6,086 nucleotides of DNA from Deltaproteobacteria bacterium. GTDB taxonomy: Bacteria > Desulfobacterota > Desulfarculia > Adiutricales > JAGVGV01. The stretch lies in the NCBI GenBank assembly GCA_015233515.1, contig JADFXS010000177.1, positions 1-6,086 on the forward strand. The letters run 5' to 3'. Under the pieces are notes generated by a model. That model made no database searches. It was not told the DNA's origin and saw only the letters and a list, made by a program, of their open reading frames with translations. This document shows positions 1 through 5,971 of the stretch, in pieces. How positions within the stretch are numbered: position 1 is the stretch's first letter; each line of letters begins with the position of its first letter. Position numbers and translations under genes: made by a program.

Positions 1-318
1 AAGGGCCATGTCGGTGTACAAATCAGCGGATAAAAAACCACCGGGTTCATCTCCCTGGATTCCGCCGATAATCATCATGGTTGGGCCATCCTTACGGCCA
101 CGGATTTTATAGACATTTAATTCATATGGAGTATCCCGGAAATAGGTGGTGTGTTCACGCCGAGAGTCGTTATCGGCGGCCAGACCCCAGGTTGCCGCCG
201 GGTCGATGAGCACCAGCAATGCGATTATCATCATGATAATGGGGTGAAAATATTTCTTGACCGATCTTGGCCGCGGCATTGGGGACGAAGCTGCATTCGA
301 AATCATGGTTCGATTCAT
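1..318 (-). CDS. Csd4/Pgp1-like M14 zinc carboxypeptidase, exported; partial (C-terminal part beyond left edge)
   Basis: The frame is open for 106 codons from ATG 318 to base 1, so only the N-terminal part is present. A basic stretch (RPRSVKK, residues 16-22) precedes a hydrophobic segment (about 27-39) and a small-residue region (GLAAD, 45-49). This is a signal peptide, so the enzyme acts in the periplasm. From residue 80 comes the first zinc-site strand and loop of the M14/succinylglutamate desuccinylase-like fold, TMMIIGGIQGDEPGG. Q88 and E91 sit where usual members have His and Glu. The same Gln-x-x-Glu is the zinc site of Helicobacter pylori Csd4, a D,L-carboxypeptidase that trims muramyl tripeptide to dipeptide and shapes the cell. 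I infer the same reaction here. The third ligand (His) would lie outside the window. The start is uncertain because no Shine-Dalgarno sequence stands out. ATGs at 306 and 279 are alternatives, and 279 gives the most typical signal peptide. A 130-bp gap separates it from the upstream coiled-coil gene. Confidence 0.85.
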   Translation of the reverse strand, partial: MNRTMISNAASSPMPRPRSVKKYFHPIIMMIIALLVLIDPAATWGLAADNDSRREHTTYFRDTPYELNVYKIRGRKDGPTMMIIGGIQGDEPGGFLSADLYTDMAL

Positions 319-448
319 GAAGACCGTTTGAGAATTTTGCGCCGGCCTGCCATGACGATGAGGCCAGGCGGACAACGGCGGTGGATCGGTGTATGGCTTG
401 GAAGCCTGATCGGAAAACAAGAATTTCCACGGAGGCTGGAAATAACAA

Positions 449-1204
449 TCAGCCATTTTCAGCGGTCAGGAGTTTCTTGAGTAGCAGTTGTCCATCATCG
501 GCATAGGCGTACACCCAAGCTTGTTTATAGGTCGACGCTCCGGTTAATTTATCGATCCGTCCCCGGACGGTTTTGCCGTTTCGAATATTGAACTGGCTGC
601 CTTTTTTGATTTCGGACGGTTTACCTTGTTTAAAATCAACTTCCGGGTAAACGGCCATGGCCGGGGAACCGGCCGTGGGATTGCCTAAGACAAGGAAAAT
701 GTATCCGGAAACCGATCTGATTTCCGGGTGTAGGTTATTGAGGTTGAACTGAAAACGCAGCGCCTTGTTGTCGCCTTCCGGTTCCATGGTCAGTTTTTCG
801 GCATCCACCAAGCCGGTGGTGATCGTGGTACCGGCTGGAGACGATTGCGGTTGAGGCGGTTCCGGTGGCCTGGGGGGGTCGGGTTGGGAAGCAACCATCA
901 TCGGTGGCGCGTCGATCTTGGCGAGTGATTCCGCGGGCTTTTTAGGATCGGTTTTGTTCAGCTCGCCCACTAATTGCTGGTAATGGTCCAAGACCTTGGA
1001 TTGAAAACGAATGTCATCCGCGATACGACTGACCTTTTCCAACCTGGCTTTAAGTTCCTGGTTTTCAACCGATAGTTCCAACCAGCGATTGATACTCAGG
1101 ACGGAAACTATGGAAAAACCCAAGGCAAACAGACCGGTCAGCCATAAAAAACGGCTGGAAATGGTCAGGCGGCGGACGCGGCCGAAGGAGCGCATAATAA
1201 GCAC
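449..1204 (-). CDS. Inner-membrane-anchored coiled-coil protein with proline-rich linker and beta-rich C-terminal domain; function unknown
   Basis: I do not recognise this 251-residue protein as a named family. A short basic N-terminus (RVRR, 9-12) is followed by one membrane segment at about 19-38. A charged helical stretch at about 39-85 has heptad-like spacing (ENQELKARLEKV) and probably forms a coiled coil. A Pro-rich linker at about 98-124 is full of PP pairs. A C-terminal domain at about 130-251 alternates hydrophobic residues as beta strands do. The expected topology is a short cytoplasmic tail, one membrane pass, and the rest in the periplasm. Its place between a YkuD enzyme and an M14 carboxypeptidase suggests a scaffold or partner for peptidoglycan-trimming enzymes, which is inference. 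The start at 1204 is GTG; ATG 1195, three codons later, is equally possible, and neither has a clear ribosome binding site. It starts 35 bp after the upstream gene, consistent with one operon. Confidence 0.83.
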   Translation of the reverse strand: MLIMRSFGRVRRLTISSRFLWLTGLFALGFSIVSVLSINRWLELSVENQELKARLEKVSRIADDIRFQSKVLDHYQQLVGELNKTDPKKPAESLAKIDAPPMMVASQPDPPRPPEPPQPQSSPAGTTITTGLVDAEKLTMEPEGDNKALRFQFNLNNLHPEIRSVSGYIFLVLGNPTAGSPAMAVYPEVDFKQGKPSEIKKGSQFNIRNGKTVRGRIDKLTGASTYKQAWVYAYADDGQLLLKKLLTAENG

Positions 1205-1239: not shown

Positions 1240-2923
1240 CTATTGTTTGGCTCCCGCGCTAATGTCCTGCCAGGATTCTTCCTTGATGCGCCAGTCTTTT
1301 TTGTCTTTCTTGAAGATCAAGGTTTTCAGACCATAGTCCCGGTGTTGATCGGATCGAAAATCCTGGACAAAGGTTACCAGGGCCTGGGACCCCTCCAGCT
1401 GGACATCCGGCTTTTGGATTTTGATGGAAACGTTAGTGTATTTTTTGGCTAAGTCAGCCTTATAATTTTTGAAAGCCTTGACGTTCATACCGCGGTAACG
1501 AAAATCAGGATGGTAAAAGGCGATATATTCGTCCAGGTCTTTTTTCCGCCAGGCATTCAGCCAGTTATCAACTAATTTACGCAGTTCGTCGGCTTCATCC
1601 TTGCTAGGTTTCGGCTCCGGTTTGATTTCCGGTTTTGGTTCAGGTTTATTAGTCTGTTTAGAGGCTACGGTTGTCTCGGGTGTTTTGGGTTCGGTTTTAC
1701 TTTGCGTCGCGGCCCCAGATTTGGCGGGCGTTCGTTTTTCCGGTTTGGCGGGTTCGGTTGGCTCGGTTTTGGCGCCCATTCCTGACTCTTCGAAAACCGG
1801 CTGCTGGAGTTGGGCCTTGGCGACTAGCTTAGGTTTCGAAGAAGTCTCTGATTTGGCGGCCGCCACCGTTGTGGCCGCTCCGCTTTCCTCGGCCAGGACC
1901 TTGTCCTTGATTGAGGCCGGCAGCCATTTGGGTGCGGGCTTAGGTGGGAAATTATCCCAGACTTCAGAGGCGATTTCGTATTTCCCGTTTTTTTCGCGGA
2001 GGTATAATCGTTTTATTCCATTGCTGACGAAATGTTCATCACCGTGATAATACTGATCAAACAAGACGACTATCATGCCTTGATGACGAAAGATCCGCAA
2101 ATTATTCAGATCGACTTTGATTTTATTGTACTGCTTGAAAAGACGTTCCTTATGCGATACCCAGGCTTGATAATTTTTGCCGTCATCGCTCAGGAAATCG
2201 TCGGCGTATGCCGCCTTGTAGTCCCGAATGCTTTTCGCTATCCAAGCCTTGCGCCAGTTTTCCACAAAGGTTTTAACCCTGGCCGCTTCCCGGTTGAGGT
2301 CTTCCACTTTTTTGTATTTGTCGTCATGATAAACCAGAATCGGGGTATCATAAAGTTTTATCAACTCCTCCAGCCCCAGGATATCGATGTTTTTTAACTC
2401 CACGCAGCCGTTCGAGTCCAAGGGGGTGAGTTTTTTGTTGATGCCGTGCAGCCAGATGCCGCTGCCTTCCTTGTTCAGTCGTTTATCCCAAAAATTGGGA
2501 TAATCCATAGGGTAAGCCAGAATACCGTATAGAGGGGCCAACTCGGACATCACGGATTTTTTATTGAAAATATAAAACCCTTCCGGAGTTTTTTTGTCGC
2601 CTTGCGAAGTCTTGTCCCCCACATTTTCTCCGGTGGAACAATCCATGACCTTGCTAAGGAAGTACTGACCGCCCTTGTATTCGTAAAGAAACAGTCGTTG
2701 CTGGGATTTTTCCACAACGATTACAAAAGGCTCGGAATTCGCTCCCGGGTCGATCAGGCCATCCGGGGCTTGGTTCAAGGGTTGACCCAGGGGGGGGGTG
2801 TTTGGGGGACTGTTCCTTGGCCAGGGTCAGATCGGCGAACATCATCAGCGGCAGGGTAAGAATGGAGAACCACGTCCACATAGAGAGACCAAAAATTTTA
2901 AACATGTAATTTTTCTTAATCAT
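1240..2923 (-). CDS. Exported YkuD L,D-transpeptidase/L,D-carboxypeptidase with two NTF2-like domains (Csd6/Pgp2-like); frame interrupted at a C9 run
   Basis: Two frames must be joined. The first starts at ATG 2923 and encodes a signal peptide (KK near the start, hydrophobic core about 10-30, likely cut after TLA at 35). It then enters nine C on the coding strand. The second frame, open from 2826 to 1240 with a first common start TTG at 2778, holds the enzyme. Removing one C joins them into 560 residues. Joined numbering: YkuD domain about 65-199 with the active-site segment HGINKK...SNGCVEL, catalytic H159 and C173; NTF2-like domain 1 about 211-325; Lys/Pro/Glu/Thr-rich linker about 326-441; NTF2-like domain 2 about 442-555. 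YkuD plus NTF2 is the layout of H. pylori Csd6 and Campylobacter Pgp2, which remove the terminal D-Ala from muropeptide tetrapeptides. L,D-transpeptidation is the alternative reaction. ATG 2923 overlaps the stop of the lipoprotein gene (ATGA), which suggests translational coupling. Unless the frameshift is bypassed, the enzyme would lack its export signal. Confidence 0.9.
1600..1830 (-). other. Low-complexity Lys/Pro/Glu/Thr linker-coding segment within the YkuD gene
   Basis: This part of the YkuD reading frame encodes short imperfect Pro-Glu and Pro-Lys repeats, for example KPEPKPEIKPEPKP just before the second NTF2-like domain, and TEPTEPAKPEK further upstream. At DNA level the plus strand shows repeated ggtt/ggtttc units. 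It is probably a flexible periplasmic spacer that lets the C-terminal NTF2-like domain reach away from the catalytic core. The repeats are degenerate and stay in frame. Confidence 0.7.
2790..2798. repeat. Homopolymer run of nine G (nine C on the coding strand) at the frameshift point
   Basis: Nine consecutive G on the plus strand lie inside the YkuD gene, just after the signal-peptide codons; a second run of five G follows at 2804-2808. The frame carrying the signal peptide and the frame carrying the catalytic domain differ by one base, and they meet here. With eight C the reading is His-Pro-Pro-Leu-Gly-Gln-Pro, continuous into the enzyme. With nine the leader frame reads on to a stop at 2654 and the product is a short useless peptide. 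Upstream of the run, the enzyme frame meets a stop at 2827-2829, so the two frames overlap only between 2826 and 2654. Runs of this kind slip during replication and transcription and are also common sites of sequencing error. Confidence 0.9.
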
Positions 2924-3558
2924 GGTCCGCCAGGTTGGTCCTCCAGTTTATAAACTAAGCGGGCATTGCCTCGAACACCGGCCAAGACAAGAGCCAGTTC
3001 TCCGGTTTGGGGTGGACGATCAACCGGTTTAAACCTGATCTGATAAGTTGTGGCCCACGGGACGATATAAGGATAATAACCTTCCAACGCAGGTGTTCTT
3101 TTCTTAACGCGCCGGATTTCAAAAGGTATCATTCGTCCAAAATCCTTGTGTTCCAAATAGACCCGCCATGGCGAGTCTTTAGTGTCCAGGTCTATTTCTT
3201 CCGGGCGAGGGCCGGACACCGATAATAAAAATTCCAATTCGCTCCGACCAGCCGCCAGTTGATCGGCCAGCATTTTCTCCGACTCTTCCAGGTTAAGGCT
3301 GTAATCACGAGCGTATTGCCGGACATAAGCTCTCCGGTAATCTATGGACTTTAAAGTTCCGGCCGCCAGCAACATAGCTTCAAAGTCCTGATACACCTTG
3401 GCTTCAGTCGTCCAACGTTTAAGGACATCAGCATATGAGGGCATGAGGTCTTTTTCGTCCACAACTTGTTCCCGGCTCGATCCGGAACAGGCACATAACC
3501 AGATCGCTATCCCTAAGGCCAAGAGTGTGAACCAGCCTCTGAAGCATTGTTTCCGCAT
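2920..3558 (-). CDS. Orphan outer-membrane-type lipoprotein coupled to the YkuD gene
   Basis: The 212-residue product starts with a lipoprotein signal peptide: MRKQ, a hydrophobic core, then a lipobox Leu-Cys-Ala-Cys with the lipidated cysteine at 24. The next residues are Ser and Gly, not Asp, so by the usual Lol rule it should go to the outer membrane. The mature part is mostly charged helix to about residue 115 and then beta-like to the end, with a Tyr/Pro-rich stretch (EGYYPYIVPW). I recognise no family. I chose ATG 3558 over GTG 3564 because a strong Shine-Dalgarno sequence (AGGCGGTGA, 3569-3561) is well placed for the ATG and overlaps the GTG. The stop codon shares four bases with the start of the YkuD gene, which argues for coupled synthesis. 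It may therefore be a partner or localiser of that enzyme (inference). Confidence 0.85.
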   Translation of the reverse strand: MRKQCFRGWFTLLALGIAIWLCACSGSSREQVVDEKDLMPSYADVLKRWTTEAKVYQDFEAMLLAAGTLKSIDYRRAYVRQYARDYSLNLEESEKMLADQLAAGRSELEFLLSVSGPRPEEIDLDTKDSPWRVYLEHKDFGRMIPFEIRRVKKRTPALEGYYPYIVPWATTYQIRFKPVDRPPQTGELALVLAGVRGNARLVYKLEDQPGGP

Positions 3559-3560
3559 CT

Positions 3561-3569
3561 TCACCGCCT
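3561..3569 (-). promoter_or_regulatory. Strong ribosome binding site that decides the lipoprotein start
   Basis: The coding strand reads AGGCGGTGA two bases before ATG 3558, matching eight of nine positions of the full anti-Shine-Dalgarno complement. The core AGG lies six bases upstream of the ATG, a normal spacing. The alternative GTG at 3564 lies inside this site, so it is unlikely to be the start. Confidence 0.7.
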
Positions 3570-3595
3570 GTATTTTTCAGCCTAAAAAATTACAG
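3568..3595 (-). promoter_or_regulatory. AT-rich inverted repeat in the lipoprotein leader
   Basis: The coding strand reads CTGTAATTTTTTAG, then GC, then TGAAAAATACAG. The outer arms CTGTA/TACAG pair perfectly, and a T5/A5 stretch follows after one bulged A. The folded arm ends on the first bases of the ribosome binding site. It could weakly hide that site or be a poor terminator for purB. The stem is mostly A-T pairs, with no T-run directly after it, so I make no firm functional claim. Confidence 0.3.
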
Positions 3596-3599
3596 CTCA

Positions 3600-3628
3600 T
3601 ATATACTTCAATTTGCTTCAAGTTTCAA
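3600..3628 (-). promoter_or_regulatory. Candidate sigma-70-type promoter for the envelope gene cluster
   Basis: In the gap between purB and the lipoprotein gene, the coding strand has TTGAAA (3628-3623, five of six to the -35 consensus), a 17-bp spacer and TATATA (3605-3600, four of six to the -10 consensus). Transcription would start near 3593, giving a leader of about 35 bases before ATG 3558. It could drive the lipoprotein, YkuD, coiled-coil and M14 genes independently of purB. The region is AT-rich, so chance matches are possible. Confidence 0.45.
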
Positions 3629-3637
3629 TAGATTTCC

Positions 3638-4942
3638 TTACTTGCTTCCGTCCGCGAAAACCCGTTCGAAAATGGTATCCACGTGTTTCAAATGGTAGTT
3701 CAAGTCAAACTCGCTCTCGATTTCTTCAGAAGATAAATGTAATCTGATCTCTTGGTCTTTCAAGAGTAATTCCTTGAAGTTCAGGTTTTGCTCCCAGGCT
3801 TGCATGGCGTTACGTTGGACCAAGCGGTAGGCTTGGTCGCGGATCAAGCCTTTTTTGGTCAACGCCAAAAGGACTCGCTGTGAATTGTACAGGCCTCCGG
3901 AACTGTTCAAGTTAGCCATCATCCGATCGGGATAGACTACCAGATTTTCCATGAGCTTGGTCATGCGGGTTAACATGAAGTCCAGCAAAATAGTGCTGTC
4001 CGGGACAATAATCCGTTCCACCGAGGAATGACTTATATCACGTTCATGCCATAAGGCCACGTTTTCCAAAGCGGCCATGGCGTCGGCCCGGATCACCCGG
4101 GCCAGGCCGGTGATGTTTTCCGTAAGAATAGGGTTGCGTTTGTGAGGCATGGCTGAGGAGCCTTTCTGTTTTTTGGCGAAGGGTTCCTCGACTTCTCGGA
4201 CTTCGGTTCGCTGCAGGTGGCGGATTTCGACGGATATTTTTTCCAGGGTCGCCGCCGTTATCGCCAGGGTGGAAAAAAACTCGGCATAGCGATCTCTCTG
4301 GATAACCTGTGTGGATACCGGCGCGGGTTTCAGACCCAGCTTGGCGCACGCCTTGGCCTCAATCGCGGGGGAGATATTGGCGAAGGTCCCCACGGCTCCG
4401 GAAATCTTGCCATAAGCGATATTTTCCCTGGCGCGAACCAGCCTATCCAGGTTGCGGCCCATTTCCGCGTAATAAACAGCTAACTTTAGACCAAAGGTGA
4501 TCGGTTCGGCATGGATGCCGTGGGAACGGCCGATCATGACGGTATTTTTATGCTCAAAGGCCCGTTGTTTGATGGCCGCTCGCAGCTTCTCCACTCCTTC
4601 GATGAGCAGGTCGGCGGATTTGGACAGCAAAAGGGCGTTGGCCGTGTCCAGAACATCGGAGGAGGTTAGTCCCAGGTGGAGAAAGCGGGAGGCCGGTCCT
4701 ACGTTTTCTTCGATATTGGTCAGAAACGCGATGACATCGTGTTTGATCTCGGCTTCGATCCGGTCAATCCGATCGACGGAGAAATCGGCTTTGGCCTTGA
4801 TTTCGGCCATAGCTTCGGCCGGGATCAGTTGTTCTTCGGCCATGGCCTCGGCCACGGCTAATTCCACATCCAGCCAGGCCTGATATTTGGCCTGGGGTTC
4901 CCACAGTGCACCCATTACGGCTCGAGTATAACGAGGGATCAT
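3638..4942 (-). CDS. purB: Adenylosuccinate lyase
   Basis: This cytoplasmic enzyme of purine synthesis splits SAICAR to AICAR plus fumarate and adenylosuccinate to AMP plus fumarate. The 434-residue product is collinear and of normal length for the shorter bacterial type. Seen in order (numbered from ATG 4942): the N-terminal MIPRYTR; H68 in KHDV; H89 in HLGLTSSD; catalytic H141 in RSHGIHAEP; the fumarate lyase signature GSSAMPHKRNP at 261-271 with the catalytic serine on its flexible loop; and the C-terminal YHLKHVDTIFERV. I chose ATG 4942 over ATG 4951. The ribosome binding site AAGGA touches ATG 4951 directly but is nine bases from ATG 4942, and the later start gives His numbers 68, 89 and 141, identical to Bacillus subtilis PurB as I recall it. 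The 79-bp gap to the lipoprotein gene holds a candidate promoter, so co-transcription with the envelope genes is uncertain. Confidence 0.97.
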   Translation of the reverse strand: MIPRYTRAVMGALWEPQAKYQAWLDVELAVAEAMAEEQLIPAEAMAEIKAKADFSVDRIDRIEAEIKHDVIAFLTNIEENVGPASRFLHLGLTSSDVLDTANALLLSKSADLLIEGVEKLRAAIKQRAFEHKNTVMIGRSHGIHAEPITFGLKLAVYYAEMGRNLDRLVRARENIAYGKISGAVGTFANISPAIEAKACAKLGLKPAPVSTQVIQRDRYAEFFSTLAITAATLEKISVEIRHLQRTEVREVEEPFAKKQKGSSAMPHKRNPILTENITGLARVIRADAMAALENVALWHERDISHSSVERIIVPDSTILLDFMLTRMTKLMENLVVYPDRMMANLNSSGGLYNSQRVLLALTKKGLIRDQAYRLVQRNAMQAWEQNLNFKELLLKDQEIRLHLSSEEIESEFDLNYHLKHVDTIFERVFADGSK

Positions 4943-4951
4943 TTTTGGCAT

Positions 4952-5026: not shown

Positions 5027-5971
5027 ATGCCATGGCTGCGTCAAGTATTTTTTTTAGTGGCTGGTTATATATTGCCGCTCCGAAAATCGGTTTGGTGTGT
5101 TTGTTTGGCTCTGGCGCTGTCCGCCTGGGCCGGACCAACCTCCGGAAAAGGTGACACGTTAATGAACGGTCAAGACCGTTTTGTAATTCATCAAGGAGCC
5201 AAGGTTCATTATGTGAACTATGGTCAAGGGCCGACCGCTTTGATTTTCATCCACGGCTGGACCTGTAATGCGACTTTTTGGACGGCTCAGGCGTCTTATT
5301 TTACCCCCCGGTGGCGGGTTCTGGCCGTGGACCTGCCCGGTCACGGCAGGAGCGACGCGCCTCACGTCGCCTATACTCAGGAATACTTGGCCCGGGCGGT
5401 TCATTCGGTTATGGATCATGCCGGAGTGAATCGGGCGGTCCTCATCGGACATAGCATGGGGTTTCAGGTGGCTAGACAATTGGCCAGACTTTTTCCCGAT
5501 CAGGCGGCGGCTTTGGTTTCCGTTGATGGATCGGCCTGGCGACAACCCACGGACGAAGACGAGTTCATGGCCAGAAAAAGACGCTTGGCTTCCTTCGTCG
5601 CCACACTGCGCAGCCCGCAATACCAACAAGTGGCCAGCAGTTATATCGATCTGATGTTCACCAAGATGAGTCCGCCCGAACTCCGGCACGAAATCAAGAG
5701 CAAAATGCTGACCACTCCGGGGCATGTGGCCGCCAGCGCCATGGAAAAAATGGACGATCCCTGGGTTTGGAGCGACTTCGTCGTCAATGTTCCAACTTTG
5801 GCGATATATAGTCGGATGCCCTATGTGGACGCCGACAACCGGGAGTTCCTCCGCCGTTTGTTCCCCTCCTTGGAATACCATGAATTCAGTGGGACCGGAC
5901 ATTTTCTCATGATGGAAGAACCGGAGAAATTCAATCGGGTATTGTGGGATTTCCTGGAAAAACACCAGTAA
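5027..5971 (+). CDS. Alpha/beta hydrolase (esterase/lipase-like), probably exported
   Basis: The 314-residue product has the standard alpha/beta hydrolase order: oxyanion-hole segment IHGWTCN (75-81), DLPGHGRSD (102-110), nucleophile elbow GHSMG with S143, a cap region at about 168-245, a candidate acid D268 or D270 after the strand TLAIYS, and the catalytic His at 292 in GTGHF. The substrate cannot be told from sequence. Residues 1-42 contain two hydrophobic stretches, the second (KSVWCVCLALALSAWAG) signal-peptide-like, so periplasmic export is likely. The start is doubtful. ATG 5027 has only TTAGG touching it, whereas ATG 5162 (residue 46) has AAGGTGA seven bases upstream and would give a 269-residue cytoplasmic enzyme with the whole catalytic domain. 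It diverges from purB and no partner gene is visible. Confidence 0.92.
   Translation: MPWLRQVFFLVAGYILPLRKSVWCVCLALALSAWAGPTSGKGDTLMNGQDRFVIHQGAKVHYVNYGQGPTALIFIHGWTCNATFWTAQASYFTPRWRVLAVDLPGHGRSDAPHVAYTQEYLARAVHSVMDHAGVNRAVLIGHSMGFQVARQLARLFPDQAAALVSVDGSAWRQPTDEDEFMARKRRLASFVATLRSPQYQQVASSYIDLMFTKMSPPELRHEIKSKMLTTPGHVAASAMEKMDDPWVWSDFVVNVPTLAIYSRMPYVDADNREFLRRLFPSLEYHEFSGTGHFLMMEEPEKFNRVLWDFLEKHQ
5151..5157 (+). promoter_or_regulatory. Strong internal ribosome binding site ahead of ATG 5162 in the hydrolase gene
   Basis: AAGGTGA lies seven bases before ATG 5162. This spacing and match are much better than those at ATG 5027. It either marks the true start of a cytoplasmic enzyme or is a chance match inside codons for Gly-Lys-Gly-Asp near the end of the signal-peptide region. 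Confidence 0.4.

What the first reader, a model, noticed from the sequence alone, without database searches (positions are those of the whole stretch)
2779..2826. Possible phase-variable (or mis-sequenced) C9 run separating a signal peptide from a YkuD peptidoglycan enzyme
A complete signal peptide with a coupled start codon lies in one frame and a complete YkuD/NTF2 enzyme in the next; they meet exactly at nine C on the coding strand. Eight C would restore a 560-residue exported protein. Such runs are classic slippage switches, and I recall shape-gene variation at homopolymer tracts being reported for Campylobacter pgp1 and pgp2. If real, the cell could switch a wall-trimming enzyme, and hence shape, on and off. 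The leader frame also lets the lipoprotein be made while the enzyme is off.
Basis: partly seen in the sequence, partly recalled or inferred. Interest (0 to 1): 0.75.

Follow-up and report, generated by a model that had tools for sequence, protein, structure and literature searches.

The report
Frame break in a cell-shape enzyme gene
In this single assembled DNA fragment, a run of nine C's puts a likely cell-shape enzyme out of frame with its export signal; the run looks like a chance weak spot hit by a one-base slip (in the cell or in the sequencing), and a genetic switch is possible but not shown.

Summary
Observation confirmed; switch unproven. G9 at 2790-2798 (C9 on the coding strand) is the longest run in the record. 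A signal-peptide leader (ATG 2923) is one frame off from a YkuD + Cds6_C + DUF4440 enzyme. The nearest known protein (72%) has both in one frame; its KHPPLGQP motif places the break inside the C run; codon usage agrees. Best solved match: Bdellovibrio Bd1075, then Csd6 and Pgp2. An M99 (Csd4/Pgp1-like) gene lies downstream, as in 19 of 22 related loci. Against an evolved switch: of 64 related genomes, 61 have leader and enzyme in frame, 2 are contig-cut, 1 is broken in the opposite sense without a run; none of 62 has a C/G run of 8 or more there. But their DNA is at most about 58% alike at protein level, so recent evolution of a switch is not excluded. Long C/G runs are not enriched in 22 related loci. 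Most likely an incidental run hit by a one-base slip: a real null allele, or a sequencing error. Only reads can tell.

The parts
2790..2798 (-). C9 run (G9 on +) in which leader frame and enzyme frame meet
   Evidence: placed by homology to P0004 and, less sharply, by codon usage
2654..2923 (-). Leader ORF, 89 aa: signal peptide, probable cleavage after ...LTLA, then KEQSPKHPP; beyond the run the frame is not homologous and ends at TAG 2656-2654
   Evidence: signal peptide judged by eye and by alignment with P0004, no dedicated predictor used
1240..2778 (-). Enzyme ORF, 512 aa: YkuD, Cds6_C NTF2-like domain, Pro-rich linker, DUF4440/SnoaL domain; homology reaches upstream of the TTG to the C run (frame open from 2826)
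2920..3564 (-). Upstream lipoprotein-like gene whose TGA overlaps the leader ATG (ATGA); lipobox judged by eye
   Evidence: 43% over 166 aa with L021
449..1204 (-). Downstream protein with one likely TM segment, coiled-coil-like (by eye); holds G7 at 872-878 in an unbroken frame
   Evidence: 35% over 253 aa with L021
1..456 (-). N-terminal part of a Peptidase_M99 (Csd4/Pgp1-like) gene, cut by the record end
   Evidence: 20.8 bits, under the Pfam cut-off of 27; 64% over 56 aa with the L021 protein, which scores 135.8 bits for M99
3638..4951 (-). purB (adenylosuccinate lyase), head of the gene row; also next to the cassette in L001, L021 and, by reading its ORFs, in part in L029

Best explanation
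An ordinary exported LD-carboxypeptidase-type shape gene (Csd6/Pgp2/Bd1075 kind), in a bacterium whose closest named relatives are called Thermodesulfobacteriota or Deltaproteobacteria, carries by ordinary codon choice in a His-Pro-Pro-Leu linker, just after the signal-peptide cleavage site, a long C run. Replication slippage in that run gave an allele whose leader frame runs out at 2654 without joining the enzyme. SHOWN: the frame break, its place, the fused architecture in relatives, the absence of such a run in the (distant) relatives whose DNA is held. INFERRED: that the slip is in the cell's DNA rather than in the data; that the allele is a null or off allele, because a product begun at TTG 2778 would lack a signal peptide; that untranslated enzyme mRNA lowers expression of the two downstream genes by polarity. 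The run makes reversion possible, but nothing here shows that selection keeps it as a switch.
For: One frame in P0004 through KHPPLGQP; codon-usage change point. 19 other runs of 6-7 bases lie inside genes of the record in frames that homology carries across them, which speaks against a generally error-prone assembly. Leader in frame in 61 of 62 evaluable genomes, and no C/G run of 8 or more there in 62; enzyme body in one frame in 64 of 64 genomes. Probability of a C8 from window codon use at HPPL 0.026. C/G runs of 8 or more in L001-L022: 20 seen, 60 (order 1) and 25.6 (order 2) expected. MutS_V found in 6 of 6 nearest genomes (MutL not tested). Precedents for loss of this gene kind: C. jejuni rod isolates (PMC5133587 section 6; a figure legend there says all indels lie in homopolymeric tracts) and the N-terminal deletion of Bd1075 in B. 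bacteriovorus 109J (PMC8938487 passages).
Against: No reads, no second assembly and no close relative's DNA at this site (P0004 was found as protein only), so a data error is not excluded. The gene is conserved, so a null allele is a priori uncommon. Some near genomes carry many C9 matches (G006 60 and G008 79 overlapping matches in about 2 Mb each; not compared with expectation), so long C runs are common in part of the group.
Confidence: 0.42

Rival explanations
1. Sequencing or assembly error: the organism carries an in-frame run and the record's run length is a consensus error at its longest homopolymer.
For: The break sits at the single longest run in the record; relatives are in frame; only one contig of this gene is known (P0003: 1 member, 1 contig). 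L029 shows a leader/enzyme break without a run in another assembly, so stray breaks of some origin do occur.
Against: 19 other runs of 6-7 inside genes lie in unbroken frames; a short contig suggests short reads, whose consensus is usually right at nine bases (inference; the platform is unknown).
Confidence: 0.35
2. Evolved phase-variable switch: slippage in the C run turns export of the enzyme, and by polarity the downstream coiled-coil-like and M99 genes, on and off in subpopulations.
For: Run length and place; the off frame ends at 2654. Pgp1/pgp2 homopolymer variants are in print and were read as potential phase variation: helical-to-rod frequency 2.1e-4, and 29 of 859 genomes with 7 or 9 instead of 8 A in pgp1 (PMC5133587); also PMC5530802 passages. 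The relatives' DNA is too distant to show a switch that arose recently.
Against: No C/G run of 8 or more at this place in 62 genomes; long runs not enriched in 22 related loci; MutS_V in 6 of 6 near genomes, whereas C. jejuni lacks mismatch repair (PMC5530802); no reversion in C. jejuni in over 525,000 colonies nor on passage in PMC5530802.
Confidence: 0.13
3. Leaky or programmed +1 ribosomal frameshifting at CCC-C: ribosomes shift forward by one in the run, in exactly the needed direction, and make some exported enzyme without any DNA change.
For: The leader frame reads CAC CCC CCC CCT and the needed shift is +1. CCC-C is +1-prone, with up to 1% shifting in E. coli when placed at the second codon (PMC4519876 introduction).
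Against: No unusual RNA fold around the run (z 0.15, 1.44 and 0.25 for three stretches); the split is not conserved and L029 would need the opposite shift; the same paper gives under 0.003% for non-programmed shifts in general and says m1G37 suppresses +1 shifts; a yield near 1% would be a leak, not a main route.
Confidence: 0.07
4. Two separate genes: a small leader peptide and a cytoplasmic enzyme begun at TTG 2778.
For: Mechanical ORFs; the protein database lists the enzyme from that start (P0003).
Against: Enzyme-frame homology continues upstream of the TTG to the run; no evident Shine-Dalgarno before the TTG (by eye); a peptidoglycan enzyme without export would not meet its substrate (inference); relatives are fused.
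Confidence: 0.02

Closest known systems
Bd1075 of Bdellovibrio bacteriovorus (PDB 7O21), LD-carboxypeptidase that makes curvature
   Same: YkuD + NTF2-like core, E 2.1e-48 over query residues 17-279; loss of function by an N-terminal lesion is known in strain 109J (PMC8938487 passages)
   Different: The window's enzyme has a further linker and DUF4440 domain and sits in a gene row with M99; bd1075 is described as monocistronic; the 109J lesion is an in-frame 57-residue deletion ascribed to 8-bp repeats, not a homopolymer slip
Csd6 (Helicobacter pylori, PDB 4XZZ) and Pgp2 (Campylobacter jejuni, PDB 6XJ6)
   Same: Same two-domain core (E 4.8e-26 and 7.4e-19); a gene of the M99 kind (Csd4/Pgp1, names recalled) lies downstream here
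   Different: Extra C-terminal domain; in C. jejuni M1cam pgp1 and pgp2 lie far apart by their locus tags, 0872 and 1302
Homopolymer length variants of pgp1 and pgp2 in Campylobacter
   Same: Small indels in runs break shape peptidase genes (PMC5133587, PMC5530802)
   Different: There mainly an A8 run near the 3' end of pgp1, with many isolates and reads; here one C9 in one contig, in the leader of the pgp2-like gene

Membership tests
Csd6/Pgp2/Bd1075 LD-carboxypeptidases | YkuD catalytic domain | tested here: met
   PF03734 6.2e-15, 56.5 bits, cut-off 23.4; HG...DSNGC in the window, with H161, G162 and C175 (P0004 numbers) invariant among 15 aligned relatives; their catalytic role is recalled
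Csd6/Pgp2/Bd1075 LD-carboxypeptidases | NTF2-like Cds6_C domain after YkuD | tested here: met
   PF24125 4.3e-36; matches to 7O21, 4XZZ and 6XJ6 cover both domains
Csd6/Pgp2/Bd1075 LD-carboxypeptidases | Signal peptide in frame with the enzyme | tested here: not met
   Not met in this record; met in 61 of 62 evaluable related genomes (hydropathy proxy)
Csd6/Pgp2/Bd1075 LD-carboxypeptidases | Tetrapeptide-to-tripeptide trimming and effect on cell shape | not testable with these tools
   needs the enzyme and the organism
LdtF/DpaA/YafK (NCBIfam NF040599) | Score over the curated cut-off | tested here: not met
   28.4 bits against a cut-off of 365
Homopolymer phase-variable genes | Long run placed so that a one-base change breaks the frame | tested here: met
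   G9 2790-2798 at the joint
Homopolymer phase-variable genes | Run length varies between cells or strains | not testable with these tools
   one contig, no reads
Homopolymer phase-variable genes | Run kept in close relatives | tested here: inconclusive
   0 of 62 genomes with a C/G run of 8 or more there, but the nearest is only 58% identical; the DNA of P0004 (72%) is not held
Homopolymer phase-variable genes | Excess of long runs in the lineage | tested here: not met
   22 loci, 232,789 bases: 20 runs of 8 or more against 60 and 25.6 expected; 9 of 9 or more against 23 and 8.8; whole genomes not compared with expectation
Programmed +1 frameshift genes | Slippery site in the needed direction | tested here: met
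   CCC-C, +1 (motif from PMC4519876)
Programmed +1 frameshift genes | Stimulatory element and conserved split frames | tested here: not met
   no unusual fold; 61 of 62 relatives fused

The most novel reading that the evidence does not exclude
A C-run contingency switch just behind the signal peptide turns a whole curvature cassette (Pgp2-like enzyme, coiled-coil-like protein and, by polarity, Pgp1-like M99 peptidase) on and off in an uncultured relative of the Thermodesulfobacteriota, with +1 slippage at CCC-C giving a low leak of exported enzyme in the off state.
Probability: 0.1. Interest if true: 0.7.

Novelty: new member of a known kind. Interest (0 to 1): 0.27.

Why it matters
If the run length is real, this is another lineage, outside Campylobacter, in which a curvature-type LD-carboxypeptidase is lost or toggled by a one-base slip. 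The linkage of Pgp2-like and Pgp1-like genes seen on the way (19 of 22 loci) makes a shape cassette in this poorly cultured group testable in itself. If it is an error, it is a caution against reading switches out of single contigs.

Tried and rejected
Viral contigs: 8 stretches matched a pattern, none a relative by tblastn. Plasmids with purB and phages with the leader region, megablast only: no match. Rfam at gathering thresholds: none. Tandem repeats: one unrelated 18-base pair at 643-678. Promoter/terminator scan of 2400-3700: 1 and 2 sites against 1.3 and 1.7 in shuffles; one terminator-like site, 2747-2733 on the minus strand, lies just behind the joint, but at chance level. Conserved programmed frameshift: rejected because relatives are fused and L029 breaks in the opposite sense. 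Internal TTG start: rejected by upstream homology. Gene-caller starts as evidence of split leaders: not used. 27 of the 120 listed proteins (the window's own among them) lack a hydrophobic leader as called, but a called start can lie inside an in-frame leader, as P0062 shows against L030. Paper searches answered; no paper held 'phase variation', 'homopolymeric tract' and 'Desulfovibrio' together.

Rows left out of counts: L053 repeats the genome of L043; L063-L069 repeat genomes already counted; L001-L022 were not counted beside L023-L062 in the frame audit. Of 56 class genomes with a match (63 searched), 51 were audited; G012, G026, G029 and G056 (matches to the C-terminal part only) and G052 (a lone YkuD match near a contig start) were not. 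Of 22 phylum genomes with a match at 1e-60 or better (395 searched with P0005), 7 were already in, 13 were added, and G168 (one TAA inside its match) and G265 were not fetched. A second G005 match reads through one TAG, while the best pieces of L027, from the same genome, share one frame. Some of the 64 genomes are near-twins by their leaders (such as L071/L072 and L077/L078), so they are not 64 independent observations. An in-frame leader was judged by a 12-residue hydropathy threshold of 1.6, not by a signal-peptide predictor. Organism names rest on hit titles; no taxonomy look-up was made.

Full report
WHAT IS THERE. The window is 6086 bases, the full length of the one contig listed for its enzyme (P0003); no genome is held for it. 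On the minus strand run purB (3638-4951), a lipoprotein-like gene (2920-3564), a leader ORF (2654-2923), a YkuD/NTF2 enzyme ORF (1240-2778), a protein with one likely TM segment (449-1204) and the start of a Peptidase_M99 gene (1-456); an alpha/beta hydrolase gene (5027-5971) lies on the plus strand. The M99 fragment itself scores under the Pfam cut-off (20.8 against 27 bits); it is named by its 64% match over 56 residues to the L021 protein, which scores 135.8 bits. The lipoprotein stop and the leader start overlap as ATGA.

THE BREAK. G9 at 2790-2798 is the longest homopolymer in the record. The leader has a signal peptide (by eye) and then KEQSPKHPP. The closest known protein, P0004 (72% identity, 558 aa), reads ...VQAKDQSSKHPPLGQPLTQAPDAMIDPG in one frame. 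The leader matches it up to KHPP and the enzyme frame matches it from PPLGQPL onward, so the frame changes inside the C run. A codon-usage change-point score, trained on the record's genes away from the joint and using no homology, puts 0.55 of its mass at 2786-2801 and peaks at 2802-2803.

IS THE RUN SURPRISING? A run of nine G or C somewhere in such a record is not (0.158 of Markov copies). Given the residues His-Pro-Pro-Leu and the record's codon use, a C8 arises with probability 0.026. That is low but needs no selection.

WHAT THE ENZYME IS. Pfam gives YkuD, Cds6_C and DUF4440. Among solved structures the best match is 7O21 (E 2.1e-48), which PMC8938487 names Bd1075, then 4XZZ (Csd6) and 6XJ6 (Pgp2). 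It is far below the cut-off of the DpaA/YafK model. By kinship it is an LD-carboxypeptidase of the curvature kind with an added C-terminal domain. Activity and cell shape are untested.

RELATIVES. I audited 64 distinct genomes at DNA level: 51 of 56 class genomes with a match (63 searched) and 13 more from the 22 of 395 phylum genomes with a strong match. In all 64 the recognisable enzyme pieces (three, or two in L077, L078 and L091) share one frame. 61 have a hydrophobic leader in that frame, 2 are cut by a contig end, and 1 (L029, 58% identity over 301 residues) has a leader-like ORF in another frame. The L029 break needs the opposite shift and shows no run of five or more, so it is not the same device; its cause is open. 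The longest C/G run between leader core and YkuD is 7 (3 of 62; none of 8 or more). Two cautions: some genomes are near-twins, and even the nearest is distant, with a different linker, so conservation of the run within the genus is untested. The DNA of P0004 is not held.

LINEAGE TENDENCY. In 22 related loci (232,789 bases) C/G runs of 8 or more number 20, against 60 (order 1) and 25.6 (order 2) expected; of 9 or more, 9 against 23 and 8.8: no excess. C9 pattern matches (overlapping, both strands) in the six nearest genomes are 31, 5, 60, 79, 44 and 4 (G001, G002, G006, G008, G041, G040), so some members carry many; I did not compare these with expectation. MutS_V is found in 6 of 6; MutL was not sought.

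MECHANISM. An off allele would end translation at 2654 and leave the enzyme mRNA largely untranslated; product from TTG 2778 would stay in the cytoplasm. Polarity on the two downstream genes is expected but inferred. CCC-C is +1-prone (up to 1% in E. coli at the second codon, PMC4519876 introduction), and +1 is the needed direction, so a small leak is plausible; no unusual fold was found.

COMPARISON WITH PRINT. Every rod-shaped C. jejuni isolate described in section 6 of PMC5133587 carried a pgp1 or pgp2 lesion; a figure legend says all indels lie in homopolymeric tracts; helical-to-rod frequency was 2.1e-4; the authors speculated about phase variation, saw no reversion in over 525,000 colonies, and left a lower rate open (section 6; passages). 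In the same paper's table the pgp1 A run is 8 in 830, 9 in 20 and 7 in 9 genomes. PMC5530802 (passages) reports run changes in pgp1, no reversion on passage, and that C. jejuni lacks mismatch repair. In B. bacteriovorus 109J an N-terminal deletion inactivates Bd1075, and the authors suggest lost selection in culture (PMC8938487, passages). Loss of this gene kind is thus known; a proven reversible switch is not, in what I read.

VERDICT. Observation confirmed, switch unproven. I give 0.42 to a real but unprogrammed slip allele, 0.35 to a data error, 0.13 to an evolved switch, 0.07 to +1 recoding as the main route and 0.02 to separate genes. These are judgements, not computed odds. Reads over the run decide.

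Noticed in passing
L003-L021 (19 of 22 loci); window 1-456: A protein like the L021 Peptidase_M99 (Csd4/Pgp1-like) is encoded downstream of the Pgp2-like enzyme in 19 of 22 related loci, L021 itself included (tblastn; Pfam run on L021 only). L001 and L002 end at or about 1.1 kb after the enzyme and L022 shows none. A linked two-peptidase shape cassette seems conserved in this group.
   Followed up: partly
L029, minus strand 2552-2403: In genome G041 a signal-peptide-like ORF lies out of frame with the enzyme, in the opposite sense to the window and with no homopolymer of five or more nearby.
   Followed up: partly
window 1962-1240, enzyme C-terminal part: A Pro/Ala-rich linker and a second NTF2-like (DUF4440/SnoaL) domain follow the Csd6-like core, also in P0004 and P0005. 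Pfam does not report it for the L021 protein, although its genome matches that part at 50% (G002).
   Followed up: partly
L026 and L052 (C9), L038 and L048 (C8): C8-C9 runs occur further inside the same gene in relatives, by position in or near the linker, in genes whose pieces share one frame: further places to look for run-length variation in reads.
   Followed up: no
L045, 11 residues before the YkuD match: A G7 run lies at nearly the same place as the window's run, in an unbroken frame.
   Followed up: no
window 2920-3564 and 3638-4951; L001, L021, L029: purB and a lipoprotein-like gene precede the cassette in L001 and L021 and, by reading ORFs, in L029, but were not found by tblastn in L002-L020 and L022; several of those loci hold little upstream DNA.
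   Followed up: partly
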